A stretch of DNA of 64,000 nucleotides, taken from positions 124,001-188,000 of the forward strand of contig NZ_BOOQ01000007.1 of assembly GCF_016863315.1 (NCBI RefSeq), given 5' to 3'. Below the pieces are notes generated by a model. That model was not told where the DNA came from. It searched no databases and saw nothing but the letters and a program-made list of their open reading frames with translations. The translations under genes and the position numbers were made by a program. The stretch comes from Planotetraspora silvatica. GTDB taxonomy: Bacteria; Actinomycetota; Actinomycetes; Streptosporangiales; Streptosporangiaceae. Within the stretch, counting starts at the first letter, position 1, and the number at the start of each line of letters is the position of its first letter. Shown in pieces: positions 39,891 to 63,579 of the stretch.

Positions 39891-39905
39891 TCCCGTTGAG
39901 TGGAC
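39891..39905. promoter_or_regulatory. Steroid-locus motif, copy A
   Basis: Read on the minus strand this is GTCC-ACTCAAC-GGGA; the right half matches the consensus TCCC-RCTCAGC-GGGA well, the left half partly. It lies between divergent hsaB (91 bases) and hsaD (130 bases). Confidence 0.55.
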
Positions 39906-40034
39906 GCGGCCCGCGCGGCCCGACGCCGCCGGCGGCGGGCCCCGGGGGTCTCGCTCATCGGGATGATCATCACGACGGGCCGGTGACGTCGATTACCGTC
40001 CCCGAGGAGCCGACACTCCTACGACTGGGGCGAT

Positions 40035-40904
40035 ATGACCACGGAGCTGACCTACGAGTCGACGGCGCGTGAGCTCGCGACCGACCAGGGAGTGCTGCGT
40101 TATCACGAGGCCGGCGAGGGCCCGCCGCTGCTGCTTCTGCACGGTTCGGGTCCCGGGGTCACCGGCTGGCGGAACTTCCGCGGCAACCTGCCCGTGTTCG
40201 CCGACCACTTCCGCTGCCTGGTCCTCGAGTTCCCCGGGTTCGGAGTCAGCGAGCCGACCGGCGAGCACCCCATGGTGGCGGCCAACGGCGCGGTGATCCG
40301 CTTCCTCGACGGGCTCGGGCTCCAGCAGGTCGACGTGATCGGCAACTCCATGGGCGGCGTCATCGCCGCCCAGTTGGCGATCGCCCACCCCGACCGCGTG
40401 CGCAGGCTGGTCACCATCGGCGGCATCGGCAGGAACCTGTTCAGCCCCGGCCCGGGTGAAGGCATCAACCTCCTCATGGAGTTCACCGAGGAGCCCACCA
40501 GGGAGGCGCTCGTCCGGTGGCTCAACTCCATGGTGTACGACCCGGCGCTCGTCACCGAGGAGCTGATCGAGGAGCGCTGGGCTCAGGCCACCGACCCGGC
40601 CACGCTGGCCGGTGCGCGCCGCATGTACGGCAGGGCCGCGTCGGCGGCTCGTACGGCCGCGTTCGCCCGCTCGGACGCTCCGCCGTACTGGGCGATGCTG
40701 CACAGGCTGAAGGCCAAGACATTGATCACGTGGGGCCGTGACGACCGGGTGAGCCCGGTCGACATGGCGATCCTGCCGATGCGCACGATCCCCGACGCCG
40801 AGTTGCACATCTTCCCCGACTGCGGTCACTGGGTGATGATCGAGCAGAAGGCCGCCTGGGAGAGCGTCGTGCTCGGCTTCCTGACGAGGAAGGACGCCCA
40901 GTGA
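40035..40904 (+). CDS. hsaD: 4,9-DSHA hydrolase HsaD (alpha/beta hydrolase)
   Basis: A 289-residue meta-cleavage-product hydrolase. Features are YHEAGEGPPLLLLHGSGPGV with the oxyanion loop, the nucleophile elbow GNSMGGVIAAQLA, DDRVSPVDMA with the catalytic Asp, and DCGHWVMIEQ with the catalytic His. HsaD cleaves the C-C bond of the ring-opened steroid 4,9-DSHA, giving HIP and 2-hydroxyhexa-2,4-dienoate. Assigned from strong family likeness and the surrounding hsa genes. It overlaps kstD by four bases. Confidence 0.9.
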   Translation: MTTELTYESTARELATDQGVLRYHEAGEGPPLLLLHGSGPGVTGWRNFRGNLPVFADHFRCLVLEFPGFGVSEPTGEHPMVAANGAVIRFLDGLGLQQVDVIGNSMGGVIAAQLAIAHPDRVRRLVTIGGIGRNLFSPGPGEGINLLMEFTEEPTREALVRWLNSMVYDPALVTEELIEERWAQATDPATLAGARRMYGRAASAARTAAFARSDAPPYWAMLHRLKAKTLITWGRDDRVSPVDMAILPMRTIPDAELHIFPDCGHWVMIEQKAAWESVVLGFLTRKDAQ

Positions 40905-42574
40905 GCGAGTGGGACCACGAATTCGATCTCGTCATCGTCGGCAGCGGCGCGGGCGGCATGGCCGCCGCGCTGACCGCGCAGGACAGCGGCCTGTCCGTCG
41001 TCGTGGTCGAGAAGGGCGGGAAGTACGGCGGCAGCACGGGGATCTCCGGCGGCGGCATCTGGATTCCCAACAACCCCACCCTGCGGGCGAGGGGCCATGA
41101 CGACAGCCGTGAGTCGATCCGCCGTTATCTCGACCTGCTGACCGAGGGCCGGGTGCCGGCCGCACGGCTCGACGCGTTCGTGGACAACGGACCCGCCGCG
41201 ATGACGTTGCTCGGCAGGAGCAGGTGGATGCGGTTCTTCTGGGTGAAGGGCTACGCCGACTACCACCCGGAGCTGGAGGGCGGGCGCCCGCGGGGCCGCT
41301 CGATCGAGGCCCTGCCGTTCGACACCCGCAAGCTCGGCGACGACGAGAAACACCAGCGTCCCAACGGCATGAAGGGCCCGCTGGGCCTGTGGATCACCGC
41401 CAAGGACTACCACGACCTGGCCATGGTCAAGCGGACCTGGCGCGGCCGCTGGGCCTCGGTGATCGCGGCCTGGCGGGTCTCGTCCAACGTCGTCCGCCGC
41501 CGGCACATGGCCACCGGCGGGCGCGCGCTCGTCGCCCGGCTGCGGATGGCGCTCAAGGACGCGGGCGTCCCGCTCTGGCTCAAGACGCCCATGGCGGATC
41601 TCGTCACCGGCGACGACGGCGCCGTCACCGGCATCGTCGCCCGGCGCGACGGCGGGACCGTCAGGATCCGCGGCAGGTACGGCGTGCTGCTGGCGACGGG
41701 CGGCTTCGACCACAACCCGGAGTTGCGCGCGAAACACCTGCCCGAGGGCGCGAAGGCCGACTTCGGCATGGGAGCCAGGGAGAACACCGGCGACGGCATC
41801 CTGGCCGGCGAGCGCCTCGGCGCCGCCCTCGACCTGATGGACGACGCCTGGTGGATGCCGTCCGTTCGGCATCCCGCCGGAGCGACCATCCCGCTGGTGT
41901 CCGAGCGGTGCATCCCGCCGTCGATCATCGTGTCGTCGGAGGGCAGGCGGTTCACCAACGAGTCCTCGCCGTACGTGAACTTCGTGCACGACCAATTGGC
42001 GGGTGGGCACGTCCCGGCGTGGTTCGTGATGGACGCCAAGGCGAGGGGCCGCTATCCGTTCGCGCAGATCCTCCCGGGAGCGCCGATCCCGAAGGAGTTC
42101 TACGAGAAGGGGGTGGCGTTCGAGGCCGCCACCATCGGCGAACTGGCGGGCAAGATCGGTGTTCCGGCCGATGCTCTGGCCGGCTCCGTGGAGCGGTTCA
42201 ACCGGTTCGCCGAGGCGGGCAAGGACGAGGATTTCGGCCGTGGCGACAGCGCGTACGACCGGTATTACGGCGATCCGACGTTGAAGAATCCGAACCTCGA
42301 TGTGATCGACCGCGCGCCGTTCCACGCGTTCCGGATCGAGGTCGGGGATCTCGGCACGAAGGGCGGGCTGGTCTGCGACGAGCACAGCCGGGTGCTGCGG
42401 CCGGACGAGTCGGTGATCGAAGGGCTCTATGCCACGGGCAACACCTCGGCCTCGGTGATGGGCAACGAATACGCCGGTCCGGGGGCCACGATCGGCCCCT
42501 CGATCGTCTTCGGATACATCGCCGCACGGCACGCGGCGGCCCGCGCCCGGTCGAGCGGGCACGCGGTCCGGTAG
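40901..42574 (+). CDS. kstD: 3-ketosteroid delta1-dehydrogenase KstD
   Basis: A 557-residue FAD enzyme that puts a double bond at C1-C2 of 3-ketosteroids. The dinucleotide fold opens DLVIVGSGAGGMAAALTAQD and GKYGGSTGISGGGIWIPNN. The C-terminal KstD signature TSASVMGNEYAGPGATIGPS holds the active-site Tyr (Y524) and a conserved Gly. GTG 40901 overlaps the hsaD stop (GTGA). Full length for the family. With KshA/KshB it opens ring B. Confidence 0.92.
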   Translation: MSEWDHEFDLVIVGSGAGGMAAALTAQDSGLSVVVVEKGGKYGGSTGISGGGIWIPNNPTLRARGHDDSRESIRRYLDLLTEGRVPAARLDAFVDNGPAAMTLLGRSRWMRFFWVKGYADYHPELEGGRPRGRSIEALPFDTRKLGDDEKHQRPNGMKGPLGLWITAKDYHDLAMVKRTWRGRWASVIAAWRVSSNVVRRRHMATGGRALVARLRMALKDAGVPLWLKTPMADLVTGDDGAVTGIVARRDGGTVRIRGRYGVLLATGGFDHNPELRAKHLPEGAKADFGMGARENTGDGILAGERLGAALDLMDDAWWMPSVRHPAGATIPLVSERCIPPSIIVSSEGRRFTNESSPYVNFVHDQLAGGHVPAWFVMDAKARGRYPFAQILPGAPIPKEFYEKGVAFEAATIGELAGKIGVPADALAGSVERFNRFAEAGKDEDFGRGDSAYDRYYGDPTLKNPNLDVIDRAPFHAFRIEVGDLGTKGGLVCDEHSRVLRPDESVIEGLYATGNTSASVMGNEYAGPGATIGPSIVFGYIAARHAAARARSSGHAVR

Positions 42575-43594: not shown

Positions 43595-43617
43595 ACCCGT
43601 CCCGCGTTCCCGCCGGT

Positions 43618-43632
43618 TCCCACTGAGCGGGA
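43618..43632. promoter_or_regulatory. Steroid-locus motif, copy B
   Basis: TCCC-ACTGAGC-GGGA, an exact match to the outer arms with CT/AG inner pairs. It ends 68 bases before hsaE. The sequence around it (43616-43636) can also form a stem that may end the kshB transcript. Confidence 0.7.
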
Positions 43633-43700
43633 AGCGCGCACCGGCGGGGAGCCGTGACTGGAACCGTGGAAATCCCGAGGGCCGATCGCAGGAGGACTGG

Positions 43701-44486: not shown

Positions 44487-44499
44487 GGGTGAGACAGCA

Positions 44500-45402: not shown

Positions 45403-45420
45403 CCCACCGGGAGATCATCC

Positions 45421-46443: not shown

Positions 46444-46451
46444 GAAAAGCC

Positions 46452-47636
46452 ATGGGCAACCCGGTACTCGAAGCGATCACCCAGAGGGCCGAGGAGATCA
46501 GCGCGCTCGGTTCCGCGAACGAGACGCTGTGCAGGCTGGACGACCAGGCCGCCAAGGTGCTGCGCGAGGCCGGCGTCATCCGGATGCTCCAGCCGAAGAT
46601 CCACGGCGGCTTCGAGTTCCATCCGCGCGAGTTCGCCGAGACCGTCATGAAGATCGCCAGTCTGGACGGGTCGACCGGCTGGGTCGCCGGGGTCGTCGGC
46701 GTGCACCCCTGGGAGATGGCCTACGCCGACCCGAAGGTCCAGGAGGAGATCTGGGGGGAGAACCAGGACACCTGGATCGCCTCGCCGTACGCGCCGATGG
46801 GCGTCGCCCGGCCGGTCGACGGCGGCTACGTCTTCAACGGCCGCTGGCAGTTCTCCTCCGGCACCGACCACTGCGACTGGATCTTCCTCGGCGGCATGCT
46901 CGGCGACGAGGAGGGCAAGATGGCCAAGCCGCCGGAGCCGCTGCACCTGATCCTCCCGCGGTCCGACTACGAGATCGTCGAAGACTCGTGGAACGTGGTC
47001 GGCCTGCGGGGCACCGGCAGCAAGGACGTCGTCGTCAGGGACGCGTTCGTCCCCGGCTACCGGGTCATCCCGTTCTCGAAGGTGGTGGACGGCAGCGCGG
47101 CCAGGGAGGCGGGGCTGACCAACCCGACCTACCACCTGCCGTTCTCCGTCGCGTTCCCCCTCGGCATCACCGCCTCCGTGATCGGGATGGCCGAAGGCGC
47201 CCTCGCCCACCACCTGGCCTATCAGAAGGGGCGGGTGCAGATCACCGGCACCAAGATCAAGGACGATCCGTACGTGCTCTACGCCATCAGCGAGGCCGCG
47301 GCGGACATCGCGGCCGCGCGGTCGGCGCTCCTCGACAACGCCTCGCGGATGTACGACCTCGTCGCGGCGGGCCGCGAGGTCACCTTCGACGAGCGGGCGG
47401 TGAGCCGGCGCACCCAGGTCCAGGCGGCCTGGCGGGCGGTCCGGGCGGTCGACGAGATCGTCAACCGGTCCGGCGGGAACGCCATGCGTGTCGACAACCC
47501 GATTCAGCGCTTCTGGCGTGACGCGCACGTGGGCCTGACGCACGCCATCCACGTGCCGGGCTCGGTCTTCCACGTCTCGGCGCTGACCCAACTCGGCATC
47601 GAGCCGCCTCAAGGCCCGATGCGCTCGATGATCTGA
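46452..47636 (+). CDS. hsaA: 3-HSA hydroxylase, oxygenase component HsaA
   Basis: A 394-residue flavin-dependent monooxygenase with an acyl-CoA-dehydrogenase fold, the same length as mycobacterial HsaA. Visible blocks are AGVIRMLQPKIHGGFEFHPR, DGSTGWVAGVVGVHPWEMAY, GRWQFSSGTDHCDWIFLGG, and the C-terminal GGNAMRVDNPIQRFWRDAHV. It uses reduced flavin from HsaB to hydroxylate 3-HSA to the catechol 3,4-DHSA. ATG 46452 follows a GAGAAAAG run. Last gene of the hsaE-G-F-A set; a second homologue lies at 53988. Confidence 0.93.
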   Translation: MGNPVLEAITQRAEEISALGSANETLCRLDDQAAKVLREAGVIRMLQPKIHGGFEFHPREFAETVMKIASLDGSTGWVAGVVGVHPWEMAYADPKVQEEIWGENQDTWIASPYAPMGVARPVDGGYVFNGRWQFSSGTDHCDWIFLGGMLGDEEGKMAKPPEPLHLILPRSDYEIVEDSWNVVGLRGTGSKDVVVRDAFVPGYRVIPFSKVVDGSAAREAGLTNPTYHLPFSVAFPLGITASVIGMAEGALAHHLAYQKGRVQITGTKIKDDPYVLYAISEAAADIAAARSALLDNASRMYDLVAAGREVTFDERAVSRRTQVQAAWRAVRAVDEIVNRSGGNAMRVDNPIQRFWRDAHVGLTHAIHVPGSVFHVSALTQLGIEPPQGPMRSMI

Positions 47637-47725: not shown

Positions 47726-48904
47726 TTGAACATCCCTCCACAGCCAGGTGCCGAGTGGCGGTTCAACCCCCCGCCCGGCTGGCCGGTTCCCCCCAGAGAC
47801 TGGATCCCGACTCCGAACTGGACCGGGCCCGGCCCGGGCTGGCCGGAGCCCCCGGCGAACTGGCAGTGGTGGGTTCGCGATCTGACGGCGTTACGCGACA
47901 CCATGGCGTTCGGTCCGGGGCCGAGCGCGTTCGATCAGCGTCCGGCGGGCCCGGCCCCGATGGGCCGGCCGCCGATGGGCCCGCCGCCGGGTGGGCGGCC
48001 GCCGATGGGTCAGCCTCCGATGGGTCCCGGTCCAGGGGGTCCGGGAGCGTTCGGCCCTGCTCAGGGCGGCCCGGGCGGATTCCCTGCTCAGGGTCCGGGT
48101 GGGTTCCCTCCTCAGGGTGGCTTCGGTCAGGACGGGTTCGGGCAGGGCGGATTCGGTCAGGACGGCTTCGGGCAGGGTGGCTTCGGTCAGGACGGCTTCG
48201 GGCAGGGTGGCTTCGGCCCTGCCTACTCCGGGCCTGACTCGTTCGGCCCGGCCGGGATGGAAGCCGAGCGGCAGGATGCGGCTTCCGAACCCCTGTGGAA
48301 GACGTTGGCAGCCATCGGCGTCGCCGCCGTGATCGGCGTCGGGGTCGCTTTCGTGATCTACGCGTTTCAGGGTGACAAGGCAGGTGGCAGCAGTTCGGCG
48401 AAGCCCACCGCTTCCCCGTCCTCCAGTGCGAAGGCCGCCGCTGTGAAGAAGGCCGCGCACGTGCAGGCCGTGGCGATCGACAAGGTCCTCGATGCGAGCA
48501 AGCCCAGCCGGGGCAAGCTCCAGCAGGGGCTCAACATGATGCGGCCGCCCTGCGCGAAGGCCGAGCAGGGCATCGCGGCGATCCAGCAGGCCGCCGACCA
48601 GCGGGCCGAACAGGTCCAGCAGGCGAAGAAGCTGAAAGTCGGCGCGATAGAAGGCGGCGACGAGCTGAAGCGGCAACTCGTGACCGCGCTTCTGAACTCG
48701 CAGCGGGCCGACGACGCGTACCTGAAATGGGCGCAGAAGTACCAGGCCAACGGCTGCTCCGGGGCGACCGTGGGAGACGCGGACTACAACGCAGGGAACG
48801 CGGCGTCCAAGAGCGCCACCACGGCCAAGGCCGCGTTCGTCGACCTCTGGGGTCCGATCGCGGAACGGGAGGGGCTGCCCGCTCGCAGCCAGGGTGTGAT
48901 CTGA
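47726..48904 (+). CDS. Gly/Pro-rich single-pass membrane protein, function unknown
   Basis: A 392-residue protein starting at TTG 47726, with AGGTGAG about five bases upstream. The N-terminus is Pro/Trp-rich (WRFNPPPGWPVPPRDWIPTP), followed by PMGPPP runs and then a GQDGFGQGGF tandem repeat (30-base DNA units at about 48118-48210). One membrane helix (LAAIGVAAVIGVGVAFVIYA) is at about residues 195-215, and a helical outer domain of ~175 residues follows with Lys/Ala/Gln-rich helices and two Cys. It looks like a surface or envelope protein and does not fit steroid catabolism. The locus motif is absent upstream, so it seems an insertion in the cluster with its own promoter. Confidence 0.7.
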   Translation: MNIPPQPGAEWRFNPPPGWPVPPRDWIPTPNWTGPGPGWPEPPANWQWWVRDLTALRDTMAFGPGPSAFDQRPAGPAPMGRPPMGPPPGGRPPMGQPPMGPGPGGPGAFGPAQGGPGGFPAQGPGGFPPQGGFGQDGFGQGGFGQDGFGQGGFGQDGFGQGGFGPAYSGPDSFGPAGMEAERQDAASEPLWKTLAAIGVAAVIGVGVAFVIYAFQGDKAGGSSSAKPTASPSSSAKAAAVKKAAHVQAVAIDKVLDASKPSRGKLQQGLNMMRPPCAKAEQGIAAIQQAADQRAEQVQQAKKLKVGAIEGGDELKRQLVTALLNSQRADDAYLKWAQKYQANGCSGATVGDADYNAGNAASKSATTAKAAFVDLWGPIAEREGLPARSQGVI

Positions 48905-48978: not shown

Positions 48979-48993
48979 TCTCACTCAGCGGGA
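48979..48993. promoter_or_regulatory. Steroid-locus motif, copy C
   Basis: TCTC-ACTCAGC-GGGA, one mismatch in the left arm, and flanked by further outer pairs (GGGG and CCCC). It ends 115 bases before the hsaC start and follows the unrelated membrane-protein gene. Confidence 0.65.
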
Positions 48994-49108
48994 GCCCCCA
49001 GGCGGCGGCACGCCCTGTCTGTCACTTTGGGGTGGACGACGGCCGCTCGCTCAGGCCAGGCCCGAGCGTGGGTGCAGCGAGCTCGGCACCGGCAGATGGG
49101 TGGACAGG

Positions 49109-50041: not shown

Positions 50042-51522
50042 GCATGGGCGCCGTGCCGCCGGTCGAGCCCGTGCCCGCCGATTCGATCACCGCCTTCGAC
50101 CATGAATGCGACGTGCTCGTCGTCGGCTTCGGATGCGCCGGCGCGGCCGCCGCCTTCGAGGCCGCGACGGCGGGCGCCGACGTGCTCGTGCTGGAGCGCG
50201 CGGGCGGGCCCGGCGGCTCCTCGGCGCAGTCCGGGGGAGAGCTCTATCTCGGGGGCGGCACCGCGGTGCAGCGGGCGTGCGGCTTCGACGACGATCCGGA
50301 CAACATGTTCGCCTTCCTCAAGGCGGCGCTCGGCCCGCACGCCGACGAGGAGAAGCTGCGGCTGTACTGCGACGAGAGCGTCGAGCACTTCGAATGGTTC
50401 CGCGGCCGGGGTCTCACCTTCAACGAGACGTTGCACGACGCCCCGACCTGGATGCCCCTGACGACCGACGGCCTGATGTGGCTGGGCGAGAACGCCTGGC
50501 CGTACAACACGATCGCCCGGCCGGTTCCGCGCGGCCATCGGCCGGCGACCGAGGCGTTCGGCGGCTGGCTGCTCATGGAGAAGCTGGCCGAGGCCGCGAA
50601 GGCCGCGGGCGCGGCCTGCCACGCCGACACCCGCGCCGCCAATCTGATCGTGGACGGCGACGGCCGGGTGGCCGGAGTCGTGGCGCGCAGATACGGCGAG
50701 ACGCTGACCTATCGCGCGCGCCGGGCGGTGATCCTCACGACCGGCGGCTTCGTCGACAACGAGGAGATGCTGGCCGACCACGCCCCCGTGCTGCTCGGCC
50801 ACGGCAAGGTCAGCGACGGCCTCGACGACGGCGGCGGCATCCGGATGGCGACGGCGCTCGGCGCGGCCACCCGGCGCATGTCGGTCGTGGAGATCGCCCT
50901 GACGGCGCTGCCCGCGATCCTCGTGCGCGGCATGCTCGTCAACGCGCTCGGCCAGAGGTTCATCAACGAGGACGTCTATCCGGGCCTGTTCAGCGTGGCC
51001 GCCGTACGGCACCAGCCGGGCCCCTACTGGGCGATCATCGACGAGAAGGGCTACGAGGAGATCCCGCCCGAGGACCTGTGGGGTGTACGCCCGCGGTTCG
51101 TCGCGGAGACGGTCGCCGAGCTGGAGGAGTCGCTCGGCATGCCGGTAGGAGCGCTGGAGGCCACCCTCGCCGTGTACAACCGGCACGCGGAGCGGGCGAG
51201 CGACCCCTACTTCCACAAGGACCAGAGGTGGCTGCGGCCACTGCGGCCGCCGCTCGCCGCCGTCGATCCGCAGGAGGGCTTCGCCCCGGGCGACGCCGAG
51301 GGCGCGGGCAAGGGGACCGGCGTCGCCGGCTTCACGCTCGGCGGGCTGCACACCACCGTGGACGGCGCCGTGCTCAACCACTCGGGGCGGCCGATTCCCG
51401 GCCTGTACGCCGCGGGCCGGGCCGGTGCCGGAATCCACGGCGAGGGCTACATCAGCGGGACGTCGCTCGGCGACGGCACGTTCTTCGGCCGCAGGGCCGG
51501 CCGCGCCGCCGCAGGCGAATGA
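50038..51522 (+). CDS. KstD-like FAD-dependent dehydrogenase, possibly 3-ketosteroid delta4(5alpha)-dehydrogenase
   Basis: A 494-residue flavoprotein of the succinate dehydrogenase/fumarate reductase superfamily. It opens CDVLVVGFGCAGAAAAFEAA then GGPGGSSAQSGGELYLGGGT, and ends [20 protein letters not shown] with SLGDGTFFGRRAG. The Y-x-S-G ending differs from KstD and recalls the Kst4D branch, which dehydrogenates 5alpha-3-ketosteroids to delta4-steroids. That function is inferred. ATG 50038 overlaps the hsaC stop (ATGA), so it is produced with the ring-cleavage dioxygenase. Confidence 0.8.
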   Translation: MSMGAVPPVEPVPADSITAFDHECDVLVVGFGCAGAAAAFEAATAGADVLVLERAGGPGGSSAQSGGELYLGGGTAVQRACGFDDDPDNMFAFLKAALGPHADEEKLRLYCDESVEHFEWFRGRGLTFNETLHDAPTWMPLTTDGLMWLGENAWPYNTIARPVPRGHRPATEAFGGWLLMEKLAEAAKAAGAACHADTRAANLIVDGDGRVAGVVARRYGETLTYRARRAVILTTGGFVDNEEMLADHAPVLLGHGKVSDGLDDGGGIRMATALGAATRRMSVVEIALTALPAILVRGMLVNALGQRFINEDVYPGLFSVAAVRHQPGPYWAIIDEKGYEEIPPEDLWGVRPRFVAETVAELEESLGMPVGALEATLAVYNRHAERASDPYFHKDQRWLRPLRPPLAAVDPQEGFAPGDAEGAGKGTGVAGFTLGGLHTTVDGAVLNHSGRPIPGLYAAGRAGAGIHGEGYISGTSLGDGTFFGRRAGRAAAGE

Positions 51523-52387: not shown

Positions 52388-52398
52388 GGTGAGTCCGG

Positions 52399-53822: not shown

Positions 53823-53892
53823 GTTGACCCATCCCTTCAAGGACGCACGTCCTCCCAGCATGCCAATTCGGATCCGGCCGCCCGGCCGTCAG

Positions 53893-53907
53893 TCCCATTG
53901 GCCGGGA
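53893..53907. promoter_or_regulatory. Steroid-locus motif, copy D
   Basis: TCCC-ATTGGCC-GGGA, exact outer arms. It lies between divergent kshA (70 bases) and the second hsaA-like gene (80 bases), and is enclosed by a wider GTCAG/CTGAC pair. Confidence 0.6.
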
Positions 53908-53987
53908 TGGCCCTGACATGCGCTCATCGGCGCGACGCACCATCATGGACGCAGAGACCCGGACGAACGCGACATGGAGAGCGACAC

Positions 53988-55154
53988 ATGAGCAACGAGG
54001 TCCTGGAGGCGGTCCGCACGCTGCTGCCCGTGATCGCGGAGCGTGCCCGCGCCACGGACGAGGATCGGGGGGTTCCCGCGGAGACGATCCAGGCGCTGGT
54101 CCAGGCCGGGGTCTTCCGGATGTTGCAGCCCAAGAGGTACGGCGGCGCCGAGAGCGACCCGGTGTGGTTCTTCGAGGTCGTCAGGGAGATCTCCGGGGTC
54201 TGCGGATCGACCGGGTGGGTGGCGAGCGTGCTCGGCGTGCATCCGTGGCAGCTCGGCCTGTTCGACGAGGCCGCGCAGGACGAGGTCTGGGGCGAGGACC
54301 AGGACGCGCTCGTGGCCTCGTCGTACGCCCCCGTCGGGCGGCTGACCCCGGTCGAGGGCGGCTATGAGCTCACCGGCAGGTGGCGGTTCTCCTCCGGCTG
54401 CGAGCACGCATCGTGGGTGCTTGTCGGCGGCCTGGTCGTGGGCGCCCAGGGCAGGCCGGTGGACTTCATGACCGTGCTCGTCCCCCGGTCGGACTACGTG
54501 ATCGAGGACGTGTGGGACGTCATCGGCCTGCGCGGCACGGCGAGCAACGACGTGATCGTGGAGCGGGCGTTCGTGCCCGAGCACCGCACGACGCGCAACT
54601 ACGAGCAGGCCCAGCTCCGCGGTCCCGGTCAGAAGGTTAACGGCGGGCCGCTCTACCGGATGCCGTTCGGAAGCGTGTTCACGACCGCGATCACCGCCCC
54701 GGTGATCGGCATGGCGGCCGGCTGCTACCGGTCCTACGTCACGGCGATGCGCGACCGGGTACGGCTGAGCCTGGGCGGCGGCCGGTTCGCCGAGGACCAG
54801 TTCGCCCAGGTCGCGGTGGCCCGGGCCGCCTCGGAGATCGACGCGGCGATCCTGCAGACCGACCGCAACGTGCGCGAGGTGTACGAGCACGCCGTCCGGG
54901 GCGAGCGGATCCCGATGGAGTTGCGCCTGCGTGTCCGCAGGGACCAGGTCCGCGCGACCGAGCGGGCGCTTGAGGCGATCGACATCCTCTTCAAGACCGC
55001 GGGAGGGAATTCGCTCAGACGCGGCAACCCCATCGAGCGGGCCTGGCGGGACGCCCACGCGGGCAGCGTGCATGTGGCCAACGACGTCGAGCGGGCCCTC
55101 GCGATGTACGGCAGGGGCGAGTTCGGCCTGACGGTCGAGGACAACCTCGTCTGA
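53988..55154 (+). CDS. Second HsaA-like flavin-dependent hydroxylase
   Basis: A 388-residue paralogue of HsaA. It shares the blocks AGVFRMLQPKRYGGAESDPV, GSTGWVASVLGVHPWQLGLF, GRWRFSSGCEHASWVLVGGL and GGNSLRRGNPIERAWRDAHA. GGAGAG lies six bases before ATG 53988. It may act on a different phenolic or steroid intermediate, or be an isozyme using the same HsaB. It diverges from kshA and is followed by the kstR-like gene. The two HsaA copies differ enough that recent duplication is unlikely. Confidence 0.85.
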   Translation: MSNEVLEAVRTLLPVIAERARATDEDRGVPAETIQALVQAGVFRMLQPKRYGGAESDPVWFFEVVREISGVCGSTGWVASVLGVHPWQLGLFDEAAQDEVWGEDQDALVASSYAPVGRLTPVEGGYELTGRWRFSSGCEHASWVLVGGLVVGAQGRPVDFMTVLVPRSDYVIEDVWDVIGLRGTASNDVIVERAFVPEHRTTRNYEQAQLRGPGQKVNGGPLYRMPFGSVFTTAITAPVIGMAAGCYRSYVTAMRDRVRLSLGGGRFAEDQFAQVAVARAASEIDAAILQTDRNVREVYEHAVRGERIPMELRLRVRRDQVRATERALEAIDILFKTAGGNSLRRGNPIERAWRDAHAGSVHVANDVERALAMYGRGEFGLTVEDNLV

Positions 55155-55210: not shown

Positions 55211-55225
55211 TCCCACTCACCGGTA
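55211..55225. promoter_or_regulatory. Steroid-locus motif, copy E (upstream of the kstR-like gene)
   Basis: TCCC-ACTCACC-GGTA, with one change in the right arm. It ends 68 bases before the TetR start, which would allow autoregulation if this protein binds the motif. Confidence 0.6.
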
Positions 55226-55260
55226 CGAACGGCTCGCCTCACCGCCGGTGGCGGTGTGTA

Positions 55261-55284
55261 TGGTCGTTCCGACAGAACCGACCA
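55261..55284. promoter_or_regulatory. Second inverted repeat upstream of the kstR-like gene
   Basis: Arms TGGTC-GTTC and GAAC-C-GACCA around CGACA pair along nine bases with one bulged C. It ends nine bases before the start codon, so a bound protein would block transcription start or ribosome access. Confidence 0.45.
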
Positions 55285-55293
55285 GGGGGGACC

Positions 55294-55905
55294 GTGCCGA
55301 GAATCGCCGAGGTCAGGGCGCCGGCGGAACCCAGCTCCCCGGAGCAGCGGGCCCGGCACCTGCGCATCCTCCGGGCCGCCGCGCGGATCGGGGCCGACAA
55401 GGGCCTCGAGCGCATGCAGATGCACGAGGTGGCCAAGGCCGCCGGCGTCGCGATCGCGACGTTGTACCGGTACTTCCCTTCGAAGACCCATCTGTTCACG
55501 GCCGTGCTCGCCGAGCAGATCGACCGGTTCAACGAGACCATCCCGCGCGCCGAGCCGGGCACGAGCCCGGAGGACGCGGTCGCCGACGTGCTGGTGCTGG
55601 CCAGCAGGCAGTTGCTGCGCCGGCCCAGGCTCGCGGTCGCGATGCTCCAGTCCGCGAACGCGGCGAACGCCGCCGCGGTGGCCGACGCCGGGCGGATCGA
55701 CGGCACCTTCAGCGAGATCATCGTGCGGACGCTCGGGATCGACGACCCCACCGCCCTCGACGTCACGCTGATCCGGTTGCTCATGCAGTGCTGGTACGGC
55801 GTGCTGCAGTCGAGCCTCAACGGCCGGATGTCGATCCCCGACACGGAGAGCGACATCCGGACCGCCTGCCGGCTTCTGCTCGCCCCGCGCTCGAACTCCG
55901 GGTAG
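55294..55905 (+). CDS. KstR-like TetR family regulator
   Basis: A 203-residue TetR repressor. The HTH domain RHLRILRAAARIGADKGLER and MQMHEVAKAAGVAIATLYRY-FPSKTHLF resembles KstR, the cholesterol-catabolism repressor of mycobacteria and rhodococci. The ligand domain has RRPRLAVAMLQSANAANAAA and CWYGVLQSSL. GTG 55294 follows AGGGGGG. KstR itself responds to a steroid acyl-CoA; this protein is the best candidate to bind the eight copies of the locus motif, one of which lies upstream of its own gene. Orthology to KstR is inferred. Confidence 0.82.
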   Translation: MPRIAEVRAPAEPSSPEQRARHLRILRAAARIGADKGLERMQMHEVAKAAGVAIATLYRYFPSKTHLFTAVLAEQIDRFNETIPRAEPGTSPEDAVADVLVLASRQLLRRPRLAVAMLQSANAANAAAVADAGRIDGTFSEIIVRTLGIDDPTALDVTLIRLLMQCWYGVLQSSLNGRMSIPDTESDIRTACRLLLAPRSNSG

Positions 55906-55936
55906 CTCTGGCTCCGGTAACTCGGCTCCGGGTGAC

Positions 55937-56857: not shown

Positions 56858-56900
56858 CTCTGCACACTCCTGCTCTGTCGGGTGCTCATGAGTGACGGGC

Positions 56901-58559
<1,659 letters not shown>

Positions 58560-58620
58560 CTGCGCCCTCTCTCTCGGGCGCTCATTGTGACCGCCGGGCG
58601 CGTGCCTGCCGAGGGTCGTC

Positions 58621-58635
58621 TCCCGGTCACCGGGA
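58621..58635. promoter_or_regulatory. Steroid-locus motif, copy F
   Basis: TCCCGGT-C-ACCGGGA, a perfect 15-base palindrome and the most symmetric copy. It is almost centred between the divergent fadD (61 bases) and SDR (69 bases) starts. Confidence 0.75.
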
Positions 58636-58704
58636 CGGCCCTTCCGGCAGCGGGCGGGCGACACCACTATTGCGGTCGGGCACACGGCTGAGCGGGGAGC
58701 ACGC

Positions 58705-59466
58705 ATGGGAAGTCTCGACGGGAAAGTCGCCATCGTCACCGGCGCAGGTCAGGGGGTCGGCCAGGGCATCGCGCTCGCCCTCGCCTCCGAGGGCGCGTCC
58801 GTCGCGGTCGTCGGGCGCACCATGGCCAAGCTCGAGACGACCTGCGGGCTCGTCCGCGAGCGCGGCGCGACGGCCGAGCCCTTCCTCTGCGACGTCGGCG
58901 TCACCGACACCGTCCCCTCGGTGGTCGACGAGGTGGCGGCGCGGTTCGGCGGAGTGGACATCCTCGTCAACAACGCCTACTCCGGCTCGTACGGCACGCT
59001 GCTGTCGATGAGCGACGCCGCCTTCCAGAAGGGTTTCCGCAGCGGCCCCTTCGCCGCGTTCGCCTTCATGAAGGCGTGCCACCCTCACATGAAGCGGCGC
59101 GGCGGCGGCAGCATCGTCAACCTCGTCACCTCCGCGATGGTCCGGTGGGACCCCACCACGTACGGCGCCTACGCCGCGGCCAAGCAGGCGCTCCGCTCGC
59201 TGACGCGGACGGCCGCGGCCGAATGGGGCCCCGACGGCATCCGCGCCAACTCCATCGCCCCGCACGCGTTGTCCCCGGGCCTGAAGTGGTGGACGGAGAC
59301 CAATCCGGAGGAGGCGGAGGAGTTCCGCCGGACGATCCCGCTCGGTTACATCGGGGACTGCGAGCAGGACATCGGCCGGGCCGTCGTCGCTCTCGTCGGC
59401 CCGGACCTGCGGTACCTGACCGGCGCCACCGTGCCGCTGGACGGAGGGCAGGCCTTCTTCGGCTGA
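58705..59466 (+). CDS. Short-chain dehydrogenase/reductase
   Basis: A 253-residue [13 protein letters not shown] cofactor loop, NNAYSGSYG, catalytic Ser in [11 protein letters not shown], and YAAAK. GGGGAG precedes ATG 58705. The NNA block is followed by Y rather than the usual G. Its place in front of the dehydrogenase-hydratase operon suggests a hydroxysteroid or 3-hydroxyacyl-CoA substrate, but this is context only. Confidence 0.88.
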
Positions 59467-59476
59467 CCTCGGCCTC

Positions 59477-59491
59477 TCCCGGTCAGCGGGA
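59477..59491. promoter_or_regulatory. Steroid-locus motif, copy G
   Basis: TCCC-GGTCAGC-GGGA, exact outer arms. It overlaps the left arm of the hairpin at 59482-59520, whose right arm looks like a further half site. It lies 89 bases before the acyl-CoA dehydrogenase start. Confidence 0.7.
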
Positions 59492-59520
59492 CTCGCGGGT
59501 CCGCGGCGGTCCCCGCTGAC
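59482..59520 (+). terminator. Nested hairpin behind the SDR
   Basis: GTCAGCGGG (59482-59490) pairs with CCCGCTGAC (59512-59520), and CGCGG/CCGCG forms an inner hairpin. It may end the SDR transcript, but because it overlaps motif copy G it could instead be a double operator. Confidence 0.4.
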
Positions 59521-59580
59521 TAACGTCGGCCCTGCTCCGCCACCCAGCGAGACGAGCGGGACCAAGGAGGAGAGCGGAAC

Positions 59581-60747
59581 ATGGATCTGCGCGAGACCAC
59601 CGCGCAACGACGGCTGCGCACGGAGTTGCGGGAGTACTTCGCGGGCCTCCTGCCCGAGGGCGAGCGACGCCGGACGGGTGAGGAGGGCGTGGGCGGCGAC
59701 CGTTTCCGCGAGGTGGTCAGACGGCTCGGCGCCGACGGCTGGCTCGGCATCGGGTGGCCCGTCGAGTACGGCGGGCAGGGCCGGTCGGTGGAGGAACAGT
59801 ACGTGTTCTTCGACGAGGTCCAGCGGGCCGGGCTGCCCTTCCCGTTCGTCACCGTGAACACGGTCGGCCCGACCCTGATGAGCCACGGGTCGGACGAGCA
59901 GAAGAAGAGGTATCTGCCCGGCATCCTGTCCGGTGACATCGTCTTCGCGATCGGCTACACCGAGCCGGGCGCGGGCACCGACCTCGCCTCGCTGACGACC
60001 CGCGCGGTCAGGGACGGCGACGCGTGGGTCGTCGACGGCAGCAAGATCTTCACCAGCGGCGCGAACACCGCCGACTACGTGTGGCTGGCCTGCCGTACCG
60101 ACCCGGACGCGCCCAAGCACAAGGGCATCTCCATCCTGATCGTCCCCACCGCCGCCCCCGGGTTCTCCTGGAGCCCCATCCAGTGCGTGGGCGGCATGGT
60201 CGTCACGACCACGTATTACTCCGGCGTCCGCGTGCCCGCGGGCGACGTCGTCGGAGAGGTCGACGGCGGCTGGCGGCTGATCACCCACCAGCTCAACCAC
60301 GAGCGGATCGGCCTGGCGGCCATCGGCGGCCGGATGATCCAGCTGTGGGAGAACGTCCGGGACTGGGCGCGGGAGAACGGGACCATCGACCTGCCGTGGG
60401 TCCAGCGCGATCTGGCCCGCACGTACGCACGGCTGGAGGCGATGCGGCTGATGAACTGGAAGATGACCGGCGCGGTCGCCCGCGGCACCCTGTCCGGCGC
60501 GGACGCGGGCGCGGCGAAGGTCTACGGCACGGAGACGCACATCGACGTGCAGCGGACGTTGTCGGGGATCATCGGCGTCGGCGGGCGGATCCGGCCCGGG
60601 TCCCCGGGGGCCGTGCTCGCCGGACAGATCGAGCAGTTGTCGCGGCAGGGCATCGTGAACACCTTCGGCGGCGGCGTGAACGAGGTCCTGAGGGACATGG
60701 TCGCCACCCAGGGTCTCGGCCTCCCCAGGATGGGGCGCGGCGCATGA
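59581..60747 (+). CDS. Acyl-CoA dehydrogenase, catalytic subunit type
   Basis: A 388-residue acyl-CoA dehydrogenase with GWPVEYGGQGRSVEEQYVFF, YTEPGAGTDLASLTTRAV, DGSKIFTSGANTADYVW and the ending FGGGVNEVLRDMVATQGLGL. AGGAGGAGAG precedes ATG 59581. It is followed by a short-type partner, the arrangement of alpha2-beta2 steroid dehydrogenases such as the mycobacterial FadE28-FadE29 pair. It would desaturate a steroid-derived acyl-CoA. Confidence 0.9.
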   Translation: MDLRETTAQRRLRTELREYFAGLLPEGERRRTGEEGVGGDRFREVVRRLGADGWLGIGWPVEYGGQGRSVEEQYVFFDEVQRAGLPFPFVTVNTVGPTLMSHGSDEQKKRYLPGILSGDIVFAIGYTEPGAGTDLASLTTRAVRDGDAWVVDGSKIFTSGANTADYVWLACRTDPDAPKHKGISILIVPTAAPGFSWSPIQCVGGMVVTTTYYSGVRVPAGDVVGEVDGGWRLITHQLNHERIGLAAIGGRMIQLWENVRDWARENGTIDLPWVQRDLARTYARLEAMRLMNWKMTGAVARGTLSGADAGAAKVYGTETHIDVQRTLSGIIGVGGRIRPGSPGAVLAGQIEQLSRQGIVNTFGGGVNEVLRDMVATQGLGLPRMGRGA

Positions 60748-60797
60748 GCGAGTCACGACCGGTCCTCCGGCCGGCCGGGCAGGAGGGTCACCGCTGA
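60744..60797 (+). CDS. 17-residue coupling mini-ORF
   Basis: ATG 60744 overlaps the upstream dehydrogenase stop (ATGA) and its own TGA overlaps the downstream ATG 60797. It encodes MSESRPVLRPAGQEGHR. The AGGAGG for the next gene (60781-60786) lies inside it. It could hand ribosomes from one dehydrogenase subunit to the next; a function for the peptide itself is doubtful. Confidence 0.35.
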   Translation: MSESRPVLRPAGQEGHR

Positions 60798-61915
60798 TGG
60801 ACTTCACTCTCGACGACGAACTCGAAACGGTCCGCGAACTGGCGAACAAGATCTTCACCGGCCGTGCGGGCACCGACCGTGTCCGCCAGGTCGAGAGCAC
60901 TCCGTCGGGGCTCGACGAGGAGTTGTGGGCGGAGCTGGGCCGTACGGGCCTGCTGGGCATCGCGCTGCCGGAGGAGGCGGGCGGCGCCGGGCTGGGTCTC
61001 GGGGCCCTGTGCGTCCTGCTGGAGGAGCAGGGCCGCTTCGTGGCGCCCGTCCCGCTGTGGCCGGCCGCGGTCGCCGCCCTCGCGATCGCCGAGGACGGCA
61101 CGGCGGAGCAGCGCGAGAGCCTGCTTCCCGGTGCGGCCGACGGCTCGATCCGGCTCACCGCGGCGCTGGAGGAGTTCGGCTCGCACGATCCGGCCGAGCC
61201 GCGCACCGCGGCCGGACGGGACGGCGACGCCTGGCGGCTGAGCGGAGTGAAGGCCGCGGTCCCCTCGCCCTTCGGCGCGGCCCACCTGCTGGTCTCCGCG
61301 ACAGCCGACACCGGGCCCGGCCTGTTCCTGGTCGCCGCCGAGGCGGAGGGAGTCGGCTGGGATCCGGTGGAGACCACCGGTCACGACCGCGGCGGCAACC
61401 TCACTTTGACCGCCGTGCCCGCCGCGGCCGTCGGCGTTCCGGGCGACGGAGCTCTCCGGCGGACCGTCCATCGCGCCGCCGTCGCGCTGGCGGCGGTCCA
61501 GCTCGGCGTCGTCCAGGGCGCGCTGCGCCACGCCGTGACCCACCTCAGCGGGCGCAGGCAGTTCGGCCGCCCGCTGGCGACCTTCCAGGCGGTGCAGCAC
61601 CAGCTCGCCGACTGCTACATCGACATCGACGCCATGCGGGTGTGCCTGTGGCAGGCCGTCACCGCCCTTGACGCGGAGGCGGGCGAGGAGGACGCCGCGT
61701 CGGCGGTTCTGGTCGCGAAGTGGTGGGCGGGCGACGCCGGGCTGACCGTGGCGCACCGGGTGCAGCACCTCCACGGCGGAATCGGCGTGGACGTCGACTA
61801 CCCCGTGCACCGGCATTTCCTGTGGGCGCGGCAGATCTCCGGCACTCTGGGCGGGCCCAGCGCCGATCTGGCCAGGCTGGGCGCCGTGCTCGCCTCGGGG
61901 ACGGCGGCCCCGTGA
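60797..61915 (+). CDS. Acyl-CoA dehydrogenase, short subunit type (FadE29-like)
   Basis: A 372-residue partner-type dehydrogenase: MDFTLDDELETVRELANKIF start, LPEEAGGAGLGLGALCVLLE, GRRQFGRPLATFQAVQHQLA, and HLHGGIGVDVDYPVHRHFLW near the end, without a NEIQR-type block. This pattern recalls FadE29/ChsE2. It probably forms the active heterotetramer with the preceding gene product. Confidence 0.87.
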   Translation: MDFTLDDELETVRELANKIFTGRAGTDRVRQVESTPSGLDEELWAELGRTGLLGIALPEEAGGAGLGLGALCVLLEEQGRFVAPVPLWPAAVAALAIAEDGTAEQRESLLPGAADGSIRLTAALEEFGSHDPAEPRTAAGRDGDAWRLSGVKAAVPSPFGAAHLLVSATADTGPGLFLVAAEAEGVGWDPVETTGHDRGGNLTLTAVPAAAVGVPGDGALRRTVHRAAVALAAVQLGVVQGALRHAVTHLSGRRQFGRPLATFQAVQHQLADCYIDIDAMRVCLWQAVTALDAEAGEEDAASAVLVAKWWAGDAGLTVAHRVQHLHGGIGVDVDYPVHRHFLWARQISGTLGGPSADLARLGAVLASGTAAP

Positions 61916-62739
61916 GCCTGGACGGCTCGGACGCGGACGCGTGGATCGGCCGCGACCTCGGGAAGCACACGGCCGCCTACGACGAGCGCGACGTGATCCT
62001 CTACGCGCTCGCGGTCGGCGCCGCGCCCGCCGACCTGGACCTCGTCTTCGAGAAGCGGCTGCGTGTGCTGCCCACGTTCGCGCTGACGAAGGCGCAGTGG
62101 GCTCCGGACACCCTCGGCTCACTCGGCGCGTTCGACATCAGGACCACCATGCACGCGTCCCAGCGGCTGCGGGTGCTGCGGCCGCTGCCCCCGGCGGGCG
62201 AGCTGACGATGGCGTCGCGCGTCGCGCGCGTCTGGGACAAGGGCAGCGCCGCGATCTTCGAGGTCGAGGTGGAGAGCGAGTTCTTCGTCGCCACCTGGTC
62301 GCTGTTCGCGCCGGGGCGCGGCGGGTTCGGCGGCGAGCGGGGGCCGTCCGCGCCGCGACGGCGGGACACTCCGCCCGGCCACGAGTCGCGGCTCGCCACC
62401 AGGCCGGACCAGCCCGCGCTGTACCGCCTGCTCGGCGACCGGCATCACATGCACATCGATCCGGAGGCGGCGAAGGCGGCCGGGATGCCGAGGCCGTTCA
62501 TGCACGGCCTGTGCACGCTGGCCGCGGTGACGCTGCCGCTGGCCGCGGCGGTGGGGGCGCACCCGGCGGACCTGGTCGAACTGGAGGGCAGGTTCGCCTC
62601 CCCGGTCTTTCCCGGCGACCGGCTGGACGTGCGGGGGTGGGAGCTGGGAGGCCCGGGGGAGGGCACGCTCTTCGACGCGTCGGTGAACGGCACCCCCGTG
62701 CTGACCGGCGGGCGGGCTCAGTTCCGCGTCAGCACGTAG
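61912..62739 (+). CDS. ChsH3-like double hot-dog enoyl-CoA hydratase (MaoC family)
   Basis: A 275-residue hydratase-2 protein. GTG 61912 overlaps the dehydrogenase stop. The N-terminal half has RDVILYALAVGAAPADLDLV, the linker MHASQRLRVLRPLPPAGELT and VWDKGSAAIF. The C-terminal half holds the hydratase motif YRLLGDRHHMHIDPEAAKAA-GMPRPFMHGLCT with the catalytic Asp and His. The layout follows mycobacterial ChsH3 (Rv3538), which hydrates steroid side-chain enoyl-CoAs. It completes dehydrogenation and hydration steps in one operon. Its last 22 bases overlap the convergent SDR. Confidence 0.88.
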   Translation: MSLDGSDADAWIGRDLGKHTAAYDERDVILYALAVGAAPADLDLVFEKRLRVLPTFALTKAQWAPDTLGSLGAFDIRTTMHASQRLRVLRPLPPAGELTMASRVARVWDKGSAAIFEVEVESEFFVATWSLFAPGRGGFGGERGPSAPRRRDTPPGHESRLATRPDQPALYRLLGDRHHMHIDPEAAKAAGMPRPFMHGLCTLAAVTLPLAAAVGAHPADLVELEGRFASPVFPGDRLDVRGWELGGPGEGTLFDASVNGTPVLTGGRAQFRVST

Positions 62740-63485
62740 CGGGCCGGGATCTCGCCCCCGCCGTGCACGGGGATGTCCGCCCCGGTGACGTAGGAGGCGA
62801 GGTCGCTGGCCAGATAGAGGCAGGTGTTGGCCACGTCGGCGGGCACCGCCATCCGGCCCATCGGGATCAGCTCCGCGACGGCGGCGCCGCCGTCCTCGCC
62901 GTACGCCCAGGCGGCGGACTCGGTCCGGATGAGGCCGGTGGTGATGTGGTTGACCCGCACCTTCGGCGACCACTCGAGCGCCAGCGCCCTGGTGAGCACG
63001 AGCAGGCCGGCCTTGGCCGCCGAGTAGGCCGCCATGCCCGGCTGGGGATCGATGGCGGCGACGCTGCCGATGTTGATGATCGAGCCGCCGGTCTCCTGCG
63101 CCTGCATGACCTTGTTGGCGGGCTGCGCCACGTAGAACGGGGCGAGCAGGTTGAGATCCACGATCTTCTCGACGAACCGCGGCGAGACGGTCGTCGCGTC
63201 CGCTGAGGGCGAGCCCCCGGCGTTGTTGACGAGCACGTCGAGCCGACCGAGGTGCCCGACCGCCTGCTCCACCAGATGGGCGGCGGCGCCGGCGTCCCGG
63301 ATGTCGGCCGAGACGAAGCGGGCCGTCCTGCCGCCGGCGGCGGGCAGGACCTCCGGCTCCGCGCGGCCGCCCACCACCACGTCCGCGCCCGCCGCGAGGA
63401 ACCTTTCCGCGATCACGAATCCGATGCCCTTGGTGCCGCCGGTGACCAGGACCGCCTGGCTGCCGAAGTCCATCGTCACGTCCAA
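62718..63485 (-). CDS. Short-chain dehydrogenase/reductase
   Basis: A 255-residue SDR: LVTGGTKGIGFVIAERFLAA, NNAGGSPSADATT, catalytic Ser in NIGSVAAIDPQPGMAAYSAA and YSAAK, and a VHGGGEIPARYVL ending. TTG 63485 is favoured because AGGAGG stands six bases upstream; ATG 63473 is the alternative. It is divergent from the FadD3-like gene and convergent with the hydratase. Its role is probably oxidation of a hydroxyl on a steroid or ring fragment; relatives include the IpdF-type enzymes, but this is not certain. Confidence 0.85.
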   Translation of the reverse strand: MDVTMDFGSQAVLVTGGTKGIGFVIAERFLAAGADVVVGGRAEPEVLPAAGGRTARFVSADIRDAGAAAHLVEQAVGHLGRLDVLVNNAGGSPSADATTVSPRFVEKIVDLNLLAPFYVAQPANKVMQAQETGGSIINIGSVAAIDPQPGMAAYSAAKAGLLVLTRALALEWSPKVRVNHITTGLIRTESAAWAYGEDGGAAVAELIPMGRMAVPADVANTCLYLASDLASYVTGADIPVHGGGEIPARYVLTRN

Positions 63486-63564
63486 AGGGGGCCTCCTGGG
63501 ATGGGGGGTCGCGGAGAAGGATCTCTCGGAGGGTACGGCGGGGCGTACCGGGACGGGGGAGAGG

Positions 63565-63579
63565 TACCGGCCAGCGGGA
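63565..63579. promoter_or_regulatory. Steroid-locus motif, copy H
   Basis: TACC-GGCCAGC-GGGA, one change in the left arm. It lies between the divergent SDR (79 bases) and FadD3-like (44 bases) starts. Confidence 0.55.

What the first reader, a model, noticed from the sequence alone, without database searches (positions are those of the whole stretch)
39891..63579. A shared palindromic motif marks eight upstream regions of the steroid locus
Reading the gaps between genes, I find TCCC-N7-GGGA or a near copy at 39891 (minus strand), 43618, 48979, 53893, 55211, 58621, 59477 and 63565. Four are exact in the outer arms, and most inner bases fit RCTCAGC. At 58621 it is a perfect 15-base palindrome almost midway between divergent starts. 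Every main transcription unit from hsaB to the FadD3-like gene has a copy, including the kstR-like gene, while the unrelated membrane-protein gene at 47726 has none. Mycobacterial and rhodococcal KstR uses a GAAC/GTTC-type box and KstR2 an AAGCAAG/CTTGCTT-type box as I know them, so this would be a different operator. Assuming ~70% GC, a few exact copies per 64 kb are expected by chance, so the clustering in upstream regions is the evidence.
Basis: partly seen in the sequence, partly recalled or inferred. Interest (0 to 1): 0.85.

Follow-up and report, generated by a model that had tools for sequence, protein, structure and literature searches.

The report
IclR-type operator of steroid-degradation genes
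A short mirror-image DNA sequence sits at a fixed distance in front of the steroid-breakdown genes of this soil bacterium and its relatives; it is most likely the docking site of a neighbouring IclR-family switch protein that turns these genes on, and a version of the motif had been published without a proven switch protein.

Summary
The motif is real. All eight reported sites exist, and a ninth (39949, upstream of hsaD) was missed. The bare TCCC-N7-GGGA pattern is not enriched in the window, but a matrix from the nine sites gives 163 hits in 52 kb of intergenic and 1 in 653 kb of coding DNA across 77 loci of other genera. The palindrome was published in 2020 as 'Lcin1' in Nocardioides simplex, a KstR3 orthologue being the presumed regulator. 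My evidence points instead to the IclR-family gene at 38316-39206: a KstR3-like protein with the same recognition helix but no IclR orthologue in its genome lacks the motif at its promoter; some IclR homologues have it in genomes without a KstR3-type protein; and it fits the IclR group-1 core. In the window, 11 of 12 site-promoter pairs have a -10-like NANNNT 30-32 nt beyond the palindrome. In relatives 148 of 157 sites at other genes have one at 29-35 nt, against 0 of 17 at iclR itself, and -35-like hexamers are scarcely commoner than in controls. This is the geometry of an activator bound near -50. Binding and activation are inferred, not shown.

The parts
38316..39206 (+). IclR-family regulator gene (nearest curated family PcaR/PcaU/PobR); proposed binder of all sites
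   Evidence: Pfam HTH_IclR and IclR_C; TIGR02431 118.6 bits, below its 284.75 cut-off; recognition helix LPRSTAHRILDQL
39891..39905 (-). Site for hsaB (GTCCACTCAACGGGA on minus strand), -10-like TAACGT at 39860-39855
   Evidence: relatives
39949..39963 (+).
   Evidence: 50 of 53 filtered hsaD sites of relatives have TANNNT at 30-32 nt
43618..43632 (+). Site for the hsaE-hsaG-hsaF-hsaA1 unit, TCCCACTGAGCGGGA, -10-like AACCGT at 43662-43667
48979..48993 (+). Site for the hsaC-kstD2 unit, TCTCACTCAGCGGGA, -10-like CACTTT at 49023-49028
53893..53907 (.). Single site between divergent kshA(-) and hsaA2(+), TCCCATTGGCCGGGA; -10-like CATGCT 53862-53857(-) and CACCAT 53938-53943(+)
55211..55225 (+). 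Site for the KstR-like gene, TCCCACTCACCGGTA (GGTA variant), -10-like TATGGT at 55259-55264, offset 34
55294..55905 (+). KstR-like (probably KstR3) TetR-family gene; likely a target of the motif rather than its binder
   Evidence: TetR_N and TetR_C_20; NCBIfam KstR 109.7 bits, below its 280 cut-off; comparisons
58621..58635 (.). Perfect palindrome TCCCGGTCACCGGGA between the casG-like ligase(-) and an SDR gene(+); -10-like CACTAT 58665-58670(+) and CACAAT 58589-58584(-)
   Evidence: identical to the published Lcin1 consensus
59477..59491 (+). Site for the fadE-fadE-hydratase-like unit, TCCCGGTCAGCGGGA, -10-like TAACGT at 59521-59526
63565..63579 (.). Site between an SDR gene(-) and the fadD3-like gene(+, start 63624), TACCGGCCAGCGGGA; -10-like CACCAT 63610-63615(+) and TACCCT 63535-63530(-)

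Best explanation
The 15-bp palindrome (T-Y-Y-C-R-S-T-S-A-N-Y-G-G-G-A) is the operator of a local IclR-family regulator encoded at 38316-39206. A dimer or tetramer of this protein, presumably liganded by a ring-degradation or bile-acid-type intermediate, binds with its centre about 50 bp upstream of each transcription start, just above where a -35 box would lie. There it recruits RNA polymerase to promoters that have a -10 element but no evident -35. At three divergent gene pairs one central palindrome appears to serve both promoters. At iclR promoters of relatives the site lies in another geometry, which suggests autoregulation of a different kind. Shown by sequence: sites, conservation, fixed -10 spacing, co-occurrence. 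Inferred: that IclR is the binder, that it activates, and what it senses.
For: (1) Sites stand before one or more of hsaB, hsaD, hsaE, hsaC, kshA and casG orthologues in Streptosporangiaceae, Streptomyces, Saccharopolyspora, Geodermatophilus, Nocardioides, Pseudonocardia and Rhodococcus jostii; 77 of 80 IclR-containing loci show a hit >=15.5, though in L186 only one that is probably coding. (2) Of 120 family genomes 17 have IclR (>=70%) and 17 KstR-like, 16 shared. The KstR-like-only genome, G039 (79% identical, VAIATLYRYFPSK unchanged), has no hit >=14 in the 20 kb with its KstR-like, hsaB and hsaA2 genes, and three weak ones (14.0-15.2) in the flanking 40 kb. (3) Of 30 KstR-homologue promoters tested, 20 lie in genomes with an IclR of this subfamily and 18 of these score >=13.9; 2 lie in genomes without one (G039, G343) and neither has a site; 8 are distant homologues (37-39%) with AACnnGTT and no site (subfamily membership). 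(4) IclR homologues (37-44%) in 13 genomes whose KstR homologues reach only 32-39% (47% over 110 residues in G062): 5 of 13 have a strong site within 400 bp upstream (<=1 of 100 shuffles). G053, one of the other 8, has TCCCGCTCAGCGGGA upstream of hsaEGF orthologues. (5) 27 of 38 IclR proteins compared, down to 40% identity, share the helix LPRS[ST]xHRIL. (6) The motif has the IclR group-1 core CR...YG and resembles the PobR operator (PMC8222616 sections 4 and 12). (7) Spacing; -35-like hexamers 11 of 96 against 6 of 96 in control windows.
Against: No binding or expression data. The window's own iclR has no site at its promoter. G101 keeps an IclR (72%) with the signature helix and hsaA2 but has only a weak site (10.3) between them. 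8 of 13 distant IclR homologues lack a convincing site upstream, and the 5 with one, like the IclR in the G053 stretch, have helices differing from LPRS[ST]xHRIL, e.g. LPKSTVHRIM. G149 and G418 have both protein types but no site at the KstR-like gene. G308 has a second KstR-like gene (46%) with no IclR within 10 kb but sites of 13.9 and, at the neighbouring kstD, 17.7; IclR genes lie elsewhere in that genome, so a local IclR is not required. In G220 the hit upstream of the KstR-like gene is atypically placed. Both regulators co-occur in 29 of 30 named genomes, so the separation rests on few genomes. G454 (IclR 54%, no KstR3-type) showed one site >=15 in 18.7 kb and none in its hsaB-iclR gap. 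Sequences are related, so counts are not independent.
Confidence: 0.73

Rival explanations
1. The KstR-like (KstR3-type) TetR protein at 55294 binds the palindrome and represses the locus, as the authors of the Lcin1 paper presumed for its N. simplex orthologue.
For: Same cluster; 18 of 20 KstR-like promoters in IclR-bearing genomes have a site, usually with a GGTA arm (14 of 15 sites, 9 of 11); G308's second KstR-like gene has sites without a local IclR; published presumption from lithocholate induction of KR76_18060.
Against: G039 has the protein at 79% with the same recognition helix and no site; G343 likewise none. Sites near IclR homologues in genomes without a KstR3-type protein. The helix TLYRYFPSK is shared with M. 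tuberculosis KstR, whose box is TnnAACnnGTTnnA. Sites lie above the promoter, not over it.
Confidence: 0.17
2. IclR binds the sites but acts as a repressor released by a steroid intermediate.
For: The IclR family includes repressors and dual regulators (PMC8222616 section 4).
Against: Fixed position about -50 with no evident -35 element fits activation; a repressor would usually overlap the promoter (general knowledge).
Confidence: 0.14
3. Chance pattern in a GC-rich genome.
For: The bare TCCC-N7-GGGA pattern is not enriched in the window.
Against: 163 intergenic hits against 1 coding hit in other genera; fixed -10 spacing.
Confidence: 0.01

Closest known systems
Lcin1 motif of Nocardioides simplex VKM Ac-2033D (PMC7593942; sections 20 and 25 and passages read)
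   Same: Consensus TCCCGGT[C/G]ACCGGGA equals the 58621 site; [quoted passage not shown]
   Different: Regulator left open, KR76_18060 (KstR3 orthologue) presumed; what I read gives no promoter geometry and no IclR assignment.
PobR/PcaU (Acinetobacter) and GenR (C. glutamicum) IclR operators, as listed in PMC8222616 Table 1 (section 4 read)
   Same: Palindromes with TCC/TTCC arms, e.g. PobR TTGTCCGATSATCGGACAR, GenR ATTCC-N7(5)-GGAAT; aromatic-ring catabolism.
   Different: Different pathway; here TCCC arms and many operons rather than the one or two usual for the family (section 4).
KstR and KstR2 regulons of mycobacteria and rhodococci
   Same: Control of cholesterol and ring degradation genes.
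   Different: TetR repressors; the KstR box TnnAACnnGTTnnA partly overlaps the -10 (PMC1995591 passages). KstR2 box not compared.
MhpR of E. coli (operator listed in PMC8222616 section 4; activator role recalled)
   Same: IclR-family regulator of a meta-cleavage pathway whose enzymes resemble HsaC-G (recalled).
   Different: Operator GGTGCACCTGGTGCACA; different substrate.

Membership tests
IclR-family regulator (38316 gene) | N-terminal IclR HTH and C-terminal IclR effector domain | tested here: met
   PF09339 46.2 bits (cut-off 22) and PF01614 120.3 bits (cut-off 24)
IclR-family operator, group 1 | Palindrome with consensus GKTYCRY-W3-4-RYGRAMC | tested here: inconclusive
   Core CR...YG, length and dyad fit; centre base is S rather than W, as in PobR, and the TCCC arm departs from the listed GTT/TGT/WTT arms
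IclR-family operator, group 1 | Bound by the IclR protein | not testable with these tools
   Co-occurrence only
PcaR/PcaU/PobR subfamily (TIGR02431) | Score above curated cut-off | tested here: not met
   118.6 against 284.75 bits
Lcin1 motif | Consensus TCCCGGT[C/G]ACCGGGA upstream of cholate-type and hsaEGF genes | tested here: met
   Exact at 58621; variants at hsaE and kshA promoters
Lcin1 motif | Lithocholate-induced genes | not testable with these tools
   No expression data for this organism
KstR regulon | TnnAACnnGTTnnA box at the promoters | tested here: not met
   Three exact GAACNNGTTC in the window (39164, 40433, 53022), all inside genes; 48 more with one mismatch
KstR equivalog (55294 gene) | NCBIfam NF033703 cut-off | tested here: not met
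   109.7 against 280 bits
KstR2 regulon | AAGCAAG/CTTGCTT-type box | not tested
   No scan was made

The most novel reading that the evidence does not exclude
Across several orders of actinobacteria, A/B-ring degradation of bile-acid-type steroids is switched on by a previously unassigned IclR-family activator that works from -50 at promoters lacking a -35 box, using one palindrome for two divergent promoters; it also sits above the KstR3-type TetR gene, so the textbook picture of steroid catabolism held off by KstR-type repressors would be incomplete.
Probability: 0.57. Interest if true: 0.6.

Novelty: new member of a known kind. Interest (0 to 1): 0.5.

Why it matters
Actinobacterial steroid degradation is known mainly through KstR/KstR2 repression; [quoted passage not shown] This analysis gives a candidate regulator for the orphan Lcin1 motif, predicted transcription starts at 12 promoters, and a choice between two proteins that one gel-shift can settle. 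It could also give a handle for strain engineering in steroid production and for steroid biosensors.

Tried and rejected
Rejected: chance pattern; a KstR-type box as the shared operator (exact hits in genes); the -35 element of an alternative sigma factor (the motif ends 30 nt above the -10); an evident regulon beyond this locus in the own genome (of the 9 other TYYCRSTSANYGGGA places, 3 are in genes, 3 are overlapped by a predicted ORF, 3 - L321, L323, L324 - are not; I recognised no steroid gene beside them, but the flanks held are only 1.5 kb, and 53 of the 83 rows came without a locus). Led nowhere: finding the KstR-like protein's own operator; explaining the GGTA arm; reading Mohn et al. 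2012 on the RHA1 cholate cluster (not held). Not run: structure prediction, gene trees, scans of viral, phage or plasmid collections, a KstR2-box scan.

Rows dropped: 284 promoter-site rows became 174 by removing hsaD pairs beyond 100 nt and hsaB pairs beyond 125 nt (the neighbour's site) and identical sequences; one search left out the three Planotetraspora loci (77 of 80). Sites were chosen by matrix score, so base conservation inside the 15-mer is inflated; the -10 offsets are not selected that way. One search tested 23 KstR-homologue promoters; the 7 remaining rows were added. Of 11 stretches read around IclR homologues at 40-55% (L257, L258, L260-L265, L273-L275), two (L264, L275) have no hit >=15.

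Changes on checking: one search showed sites without a local IclR in G308, and one search shows other helices in the KstR3-free cases; I therefore lowered the main confidence from 0.78 to 0.73, raised the TetR rival from 0.13 to 0.17, set the repressor rival from 0.15 to 0.14 and the novel case from 0.60 to 0.57. Start positions used in scripts for hsaB, hsaA1, hsaA2, two SDR genes and fadD3 were 1-3 bases off; one search gives the right ones, and no site is affected.
Full report
Observation. All eight sites are present as described, and TCTCGCTCATCGGGA at 39949(+) upstream of hsaD is a ninth. Of 11 window places scoring >=15 with a matrix from the nine sites, nine are these sites and all nine are intergenic; the other two lie in ORFs. 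In the whole 8.66-Mb genome TYYCRSTSANYGGGA, composed after seeing the sites, matches 14 places, five of them in this locus; the backward control matches none. Of 21 looser matches fetched outside the locus, 18 lie inside predicted genes.

The locus. The genes are a 9,10-seco steroid pathway: hsaB, hsaD, kstD, kshB, hsaE-G-F, hsaA (two copies), hsaC, a second kstD, kshA, a ligase above the NCBIfam cut-off for CasG (steroid-24-oyl-CoA synthetase), fadE and SDR genes (some names rest on translations and recalled resemblance). A CasG-like ligase suggests bile-acid-type substrates (inference). Two regulators lie in it: an IclR-family gene at 38316-39206 and a KstR-like TetR gene at 55294-55905, the latter probably KstR3 (inference from context; S. 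hirsuta kstR3 lies with hsaEGF and cas genes, PMC8708139 passage). The window genome shares its genus with G104, whose contig length is that of the Planotetraspora mira contig of L112.

Conservation. In relatives of the same family the motif stands before orthologues of hsaB, hsaD, hsaE, hsaC, kshA/hsaA2, the KstR-like gene and the casG/SDR pair, not all in every genome. A search with the IclR alignment found 372 relatives and returned the best 80 as named loci, from Planotetraspora, Microbispora, Actinomadura, Streptomyces, Saccharopolyspora, Geodermatophilus, Blastococcus, Nocardioides, Pseudonocardia, Rhodococcus and others. Three of 80 (L119, L127, L130) show no hit >=15.5, and L186 only one, probably coding. 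In 77 of the 80 (Planotetraspora left out) there are 163 hits >=16 in 52 kb of intergenic DNA and one in 653 kb of coding DNA.

Prior publication. The same palindrome, TCCCGGT[C/G]ACCGGGA, was found by phylogenetic footprinting in Nocardioides simplex and named Lcin1; [quoted passage not shown] For their two motifs the authors presumed KR76_18060 (cluster E, a KstR3 orthologue) and KR76_18605, and said this needs further research (PMC7593942, sections 20 and 25 and passages). An IclR-family gene is drawn in the steroid cluster of Rhodococcus ruber Chol-4 (PMC6498646, figure-legend passage). Searches for IclR with steroid degradation, cholate, hsaB/hsaD and bile acid degradation, and for Lcin1 and KstR3, returned no paper that, in the listings and passages I saw, assigns this motif to an IclR protein. 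The library holds open-licence papers only, and the 2012 RHA1 cholate paper is not in it.

Which protein binds. Both regulators usually occur together: 16 genomes have both, one IclR (>=70%) only and one KstR-like only, out of 120; 29 of 30 named IclR genomes have a KstR-like protein. The exceptions are informative. G039 has the KstR-like protein at 79% identity with VAIATLYRYFPSK unchanged and no IclR orthologue (best IclR-family hit 1.7e-30); the 20 kb with its KstR-like, hsaB and hsaA2 genes has no hit >=14, the flanking 40 kb three weak ones. I tested 30 KstR-homologue promoters (23, 7). Twenty lie in genomes with an IclR of this subfamily: 18 score >=13.9, and G149 and G418 do not. Two lie in genomes without one (G039, G343): no site. 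Eight are distant homologues (37-39%), carry AACnnGTT and have no site; for these I did not check IclR at a relaxed threshold. A local IclR is not required: G308 has a second KstR-like gene with sites and no IclR within 10 kb, its IclR genes being elsewhere. Conversely, in 13 genomes with an IclR homologue at 37-44% and KstR homologues of 32-39% (47% over 110 residues in G062), five have a strong site within 400 bp upstream of the IclR gene and eight do not; G053, one of the eight, carries TCCCGCTCAGCGGGA before hsaEGF orthologues. IclR paralogues at 40-54% in other steroid clusters of G061, G016 and G067 also have sites, with no KstR-like gene in the stretch, though these genomes have one elsewhere. 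Of 38 IclR proteins compared, 27 share LPRS[ST]xHRIL at 40-78% identity to the window's; the KstR3-free cases do not (e.g. LPKSTVHRIM), so their link is weaker. G101 is against or neutral: its IclR has the helix, but only weak sites lie nearby.

Motif type. IclR-family group-1 operators follow GKTYCRY-W3-4-RYGRAMC, and PobR binds TTGTCCGATSATCGGACAR (PMC8222616, sections 4 and 12 part 1). The motif here, T-Y-Y-C-R-S-T-S-A-N-Y-G-G-G-A, has the same CR...YG core and the same S-centred dyad as PobR, with TCCC/TTCC arms that depart from the listed outer trinucleotides. The KstR box is a 14-bp palindrome partly overlapping the -10 (PMC1995591 passages).

Promoter geometry. In the window, 11 of 12 site-promoter pairs have NANNNT at 30-32 nt after the palindrome, against a mean of 0.93 of 12 over all three-nt windows; the twelfth, the KstR-like gene, has TATGGT at 34. 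Three single palindromes (53893, 58621, 63565) have such a hexamer on both sides. In relatives TANNNT falls at 30-32 nt in 50 of 53 hsaD and 41 of 49 hsaB sites, and NANNNT at 29-35 nt in 148 of 157 sites at genes other than iclR, but in 0 of 17 at iclR genes. A -35-like hexamer (4 of 6) occurs in 11 of 96 sites against 6 of 96 control windows. A dyad centred near -50 without a -35 is what an activator would need; iclR promoters must be controlled in another way. That these are promoters is inferred: no transcription start has been mapped.

Verdict. A real, widely conserved operator; the motif is already in print, but its regulator and mode of action are not settled in what I could read. IclR as binder is supported by comparative evidence, activation by geometry; the ligand is unknown.

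Noticed in passing
window 53857-53862 and 53861: The listed kshA start codon (53861, minus) falls on the predicted -10; alignments in relatives often begin a few residues later, so the true kshA start is probably downstream.
   Followed up: partly
window 55211-55225 and KstR-like promoters: The promoter-proximal arm is GGTA instead of GGGA at most KstR-like promoters (14 of 15 sites, 9 of 11), and in the window the -10-like hexamer lies 34 nt away; unexplained, perhaps a second protein or a weaker site.
   Followed up: partly
window 59466-59581 compared with L075:2898-4717 and L077:15529-17286: Two congeners (G104, G077) carry an extra acyl-CoA ligase-like gene between the motif and fadE; the window lacks it while the motif stays.
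   Followed up: no
window 37683-37697: TCCCGGTCATCTGGA inside a fadE gene about 0.6 kb before iclR is kept in L112-L116 and L118 (Planotetraspora, Microbispora, Sphaerisporangium); coding conservation or an extra site.
   Followed up: no
L257, L262, L263, L265, L273: Relatives hold further steroid-type clusters, each with its own IclR paralogue (40-54%) and motif copies but no KstR-like gene in the stretch read.
   Followed up: partly
window 46452-47636 and 53988-55154; 40901-42574 and 50044-51522: Two hsaA-like and two kstD-like genes in one locus, the members of each pair in different transcription units (starts).
   Followed up: no
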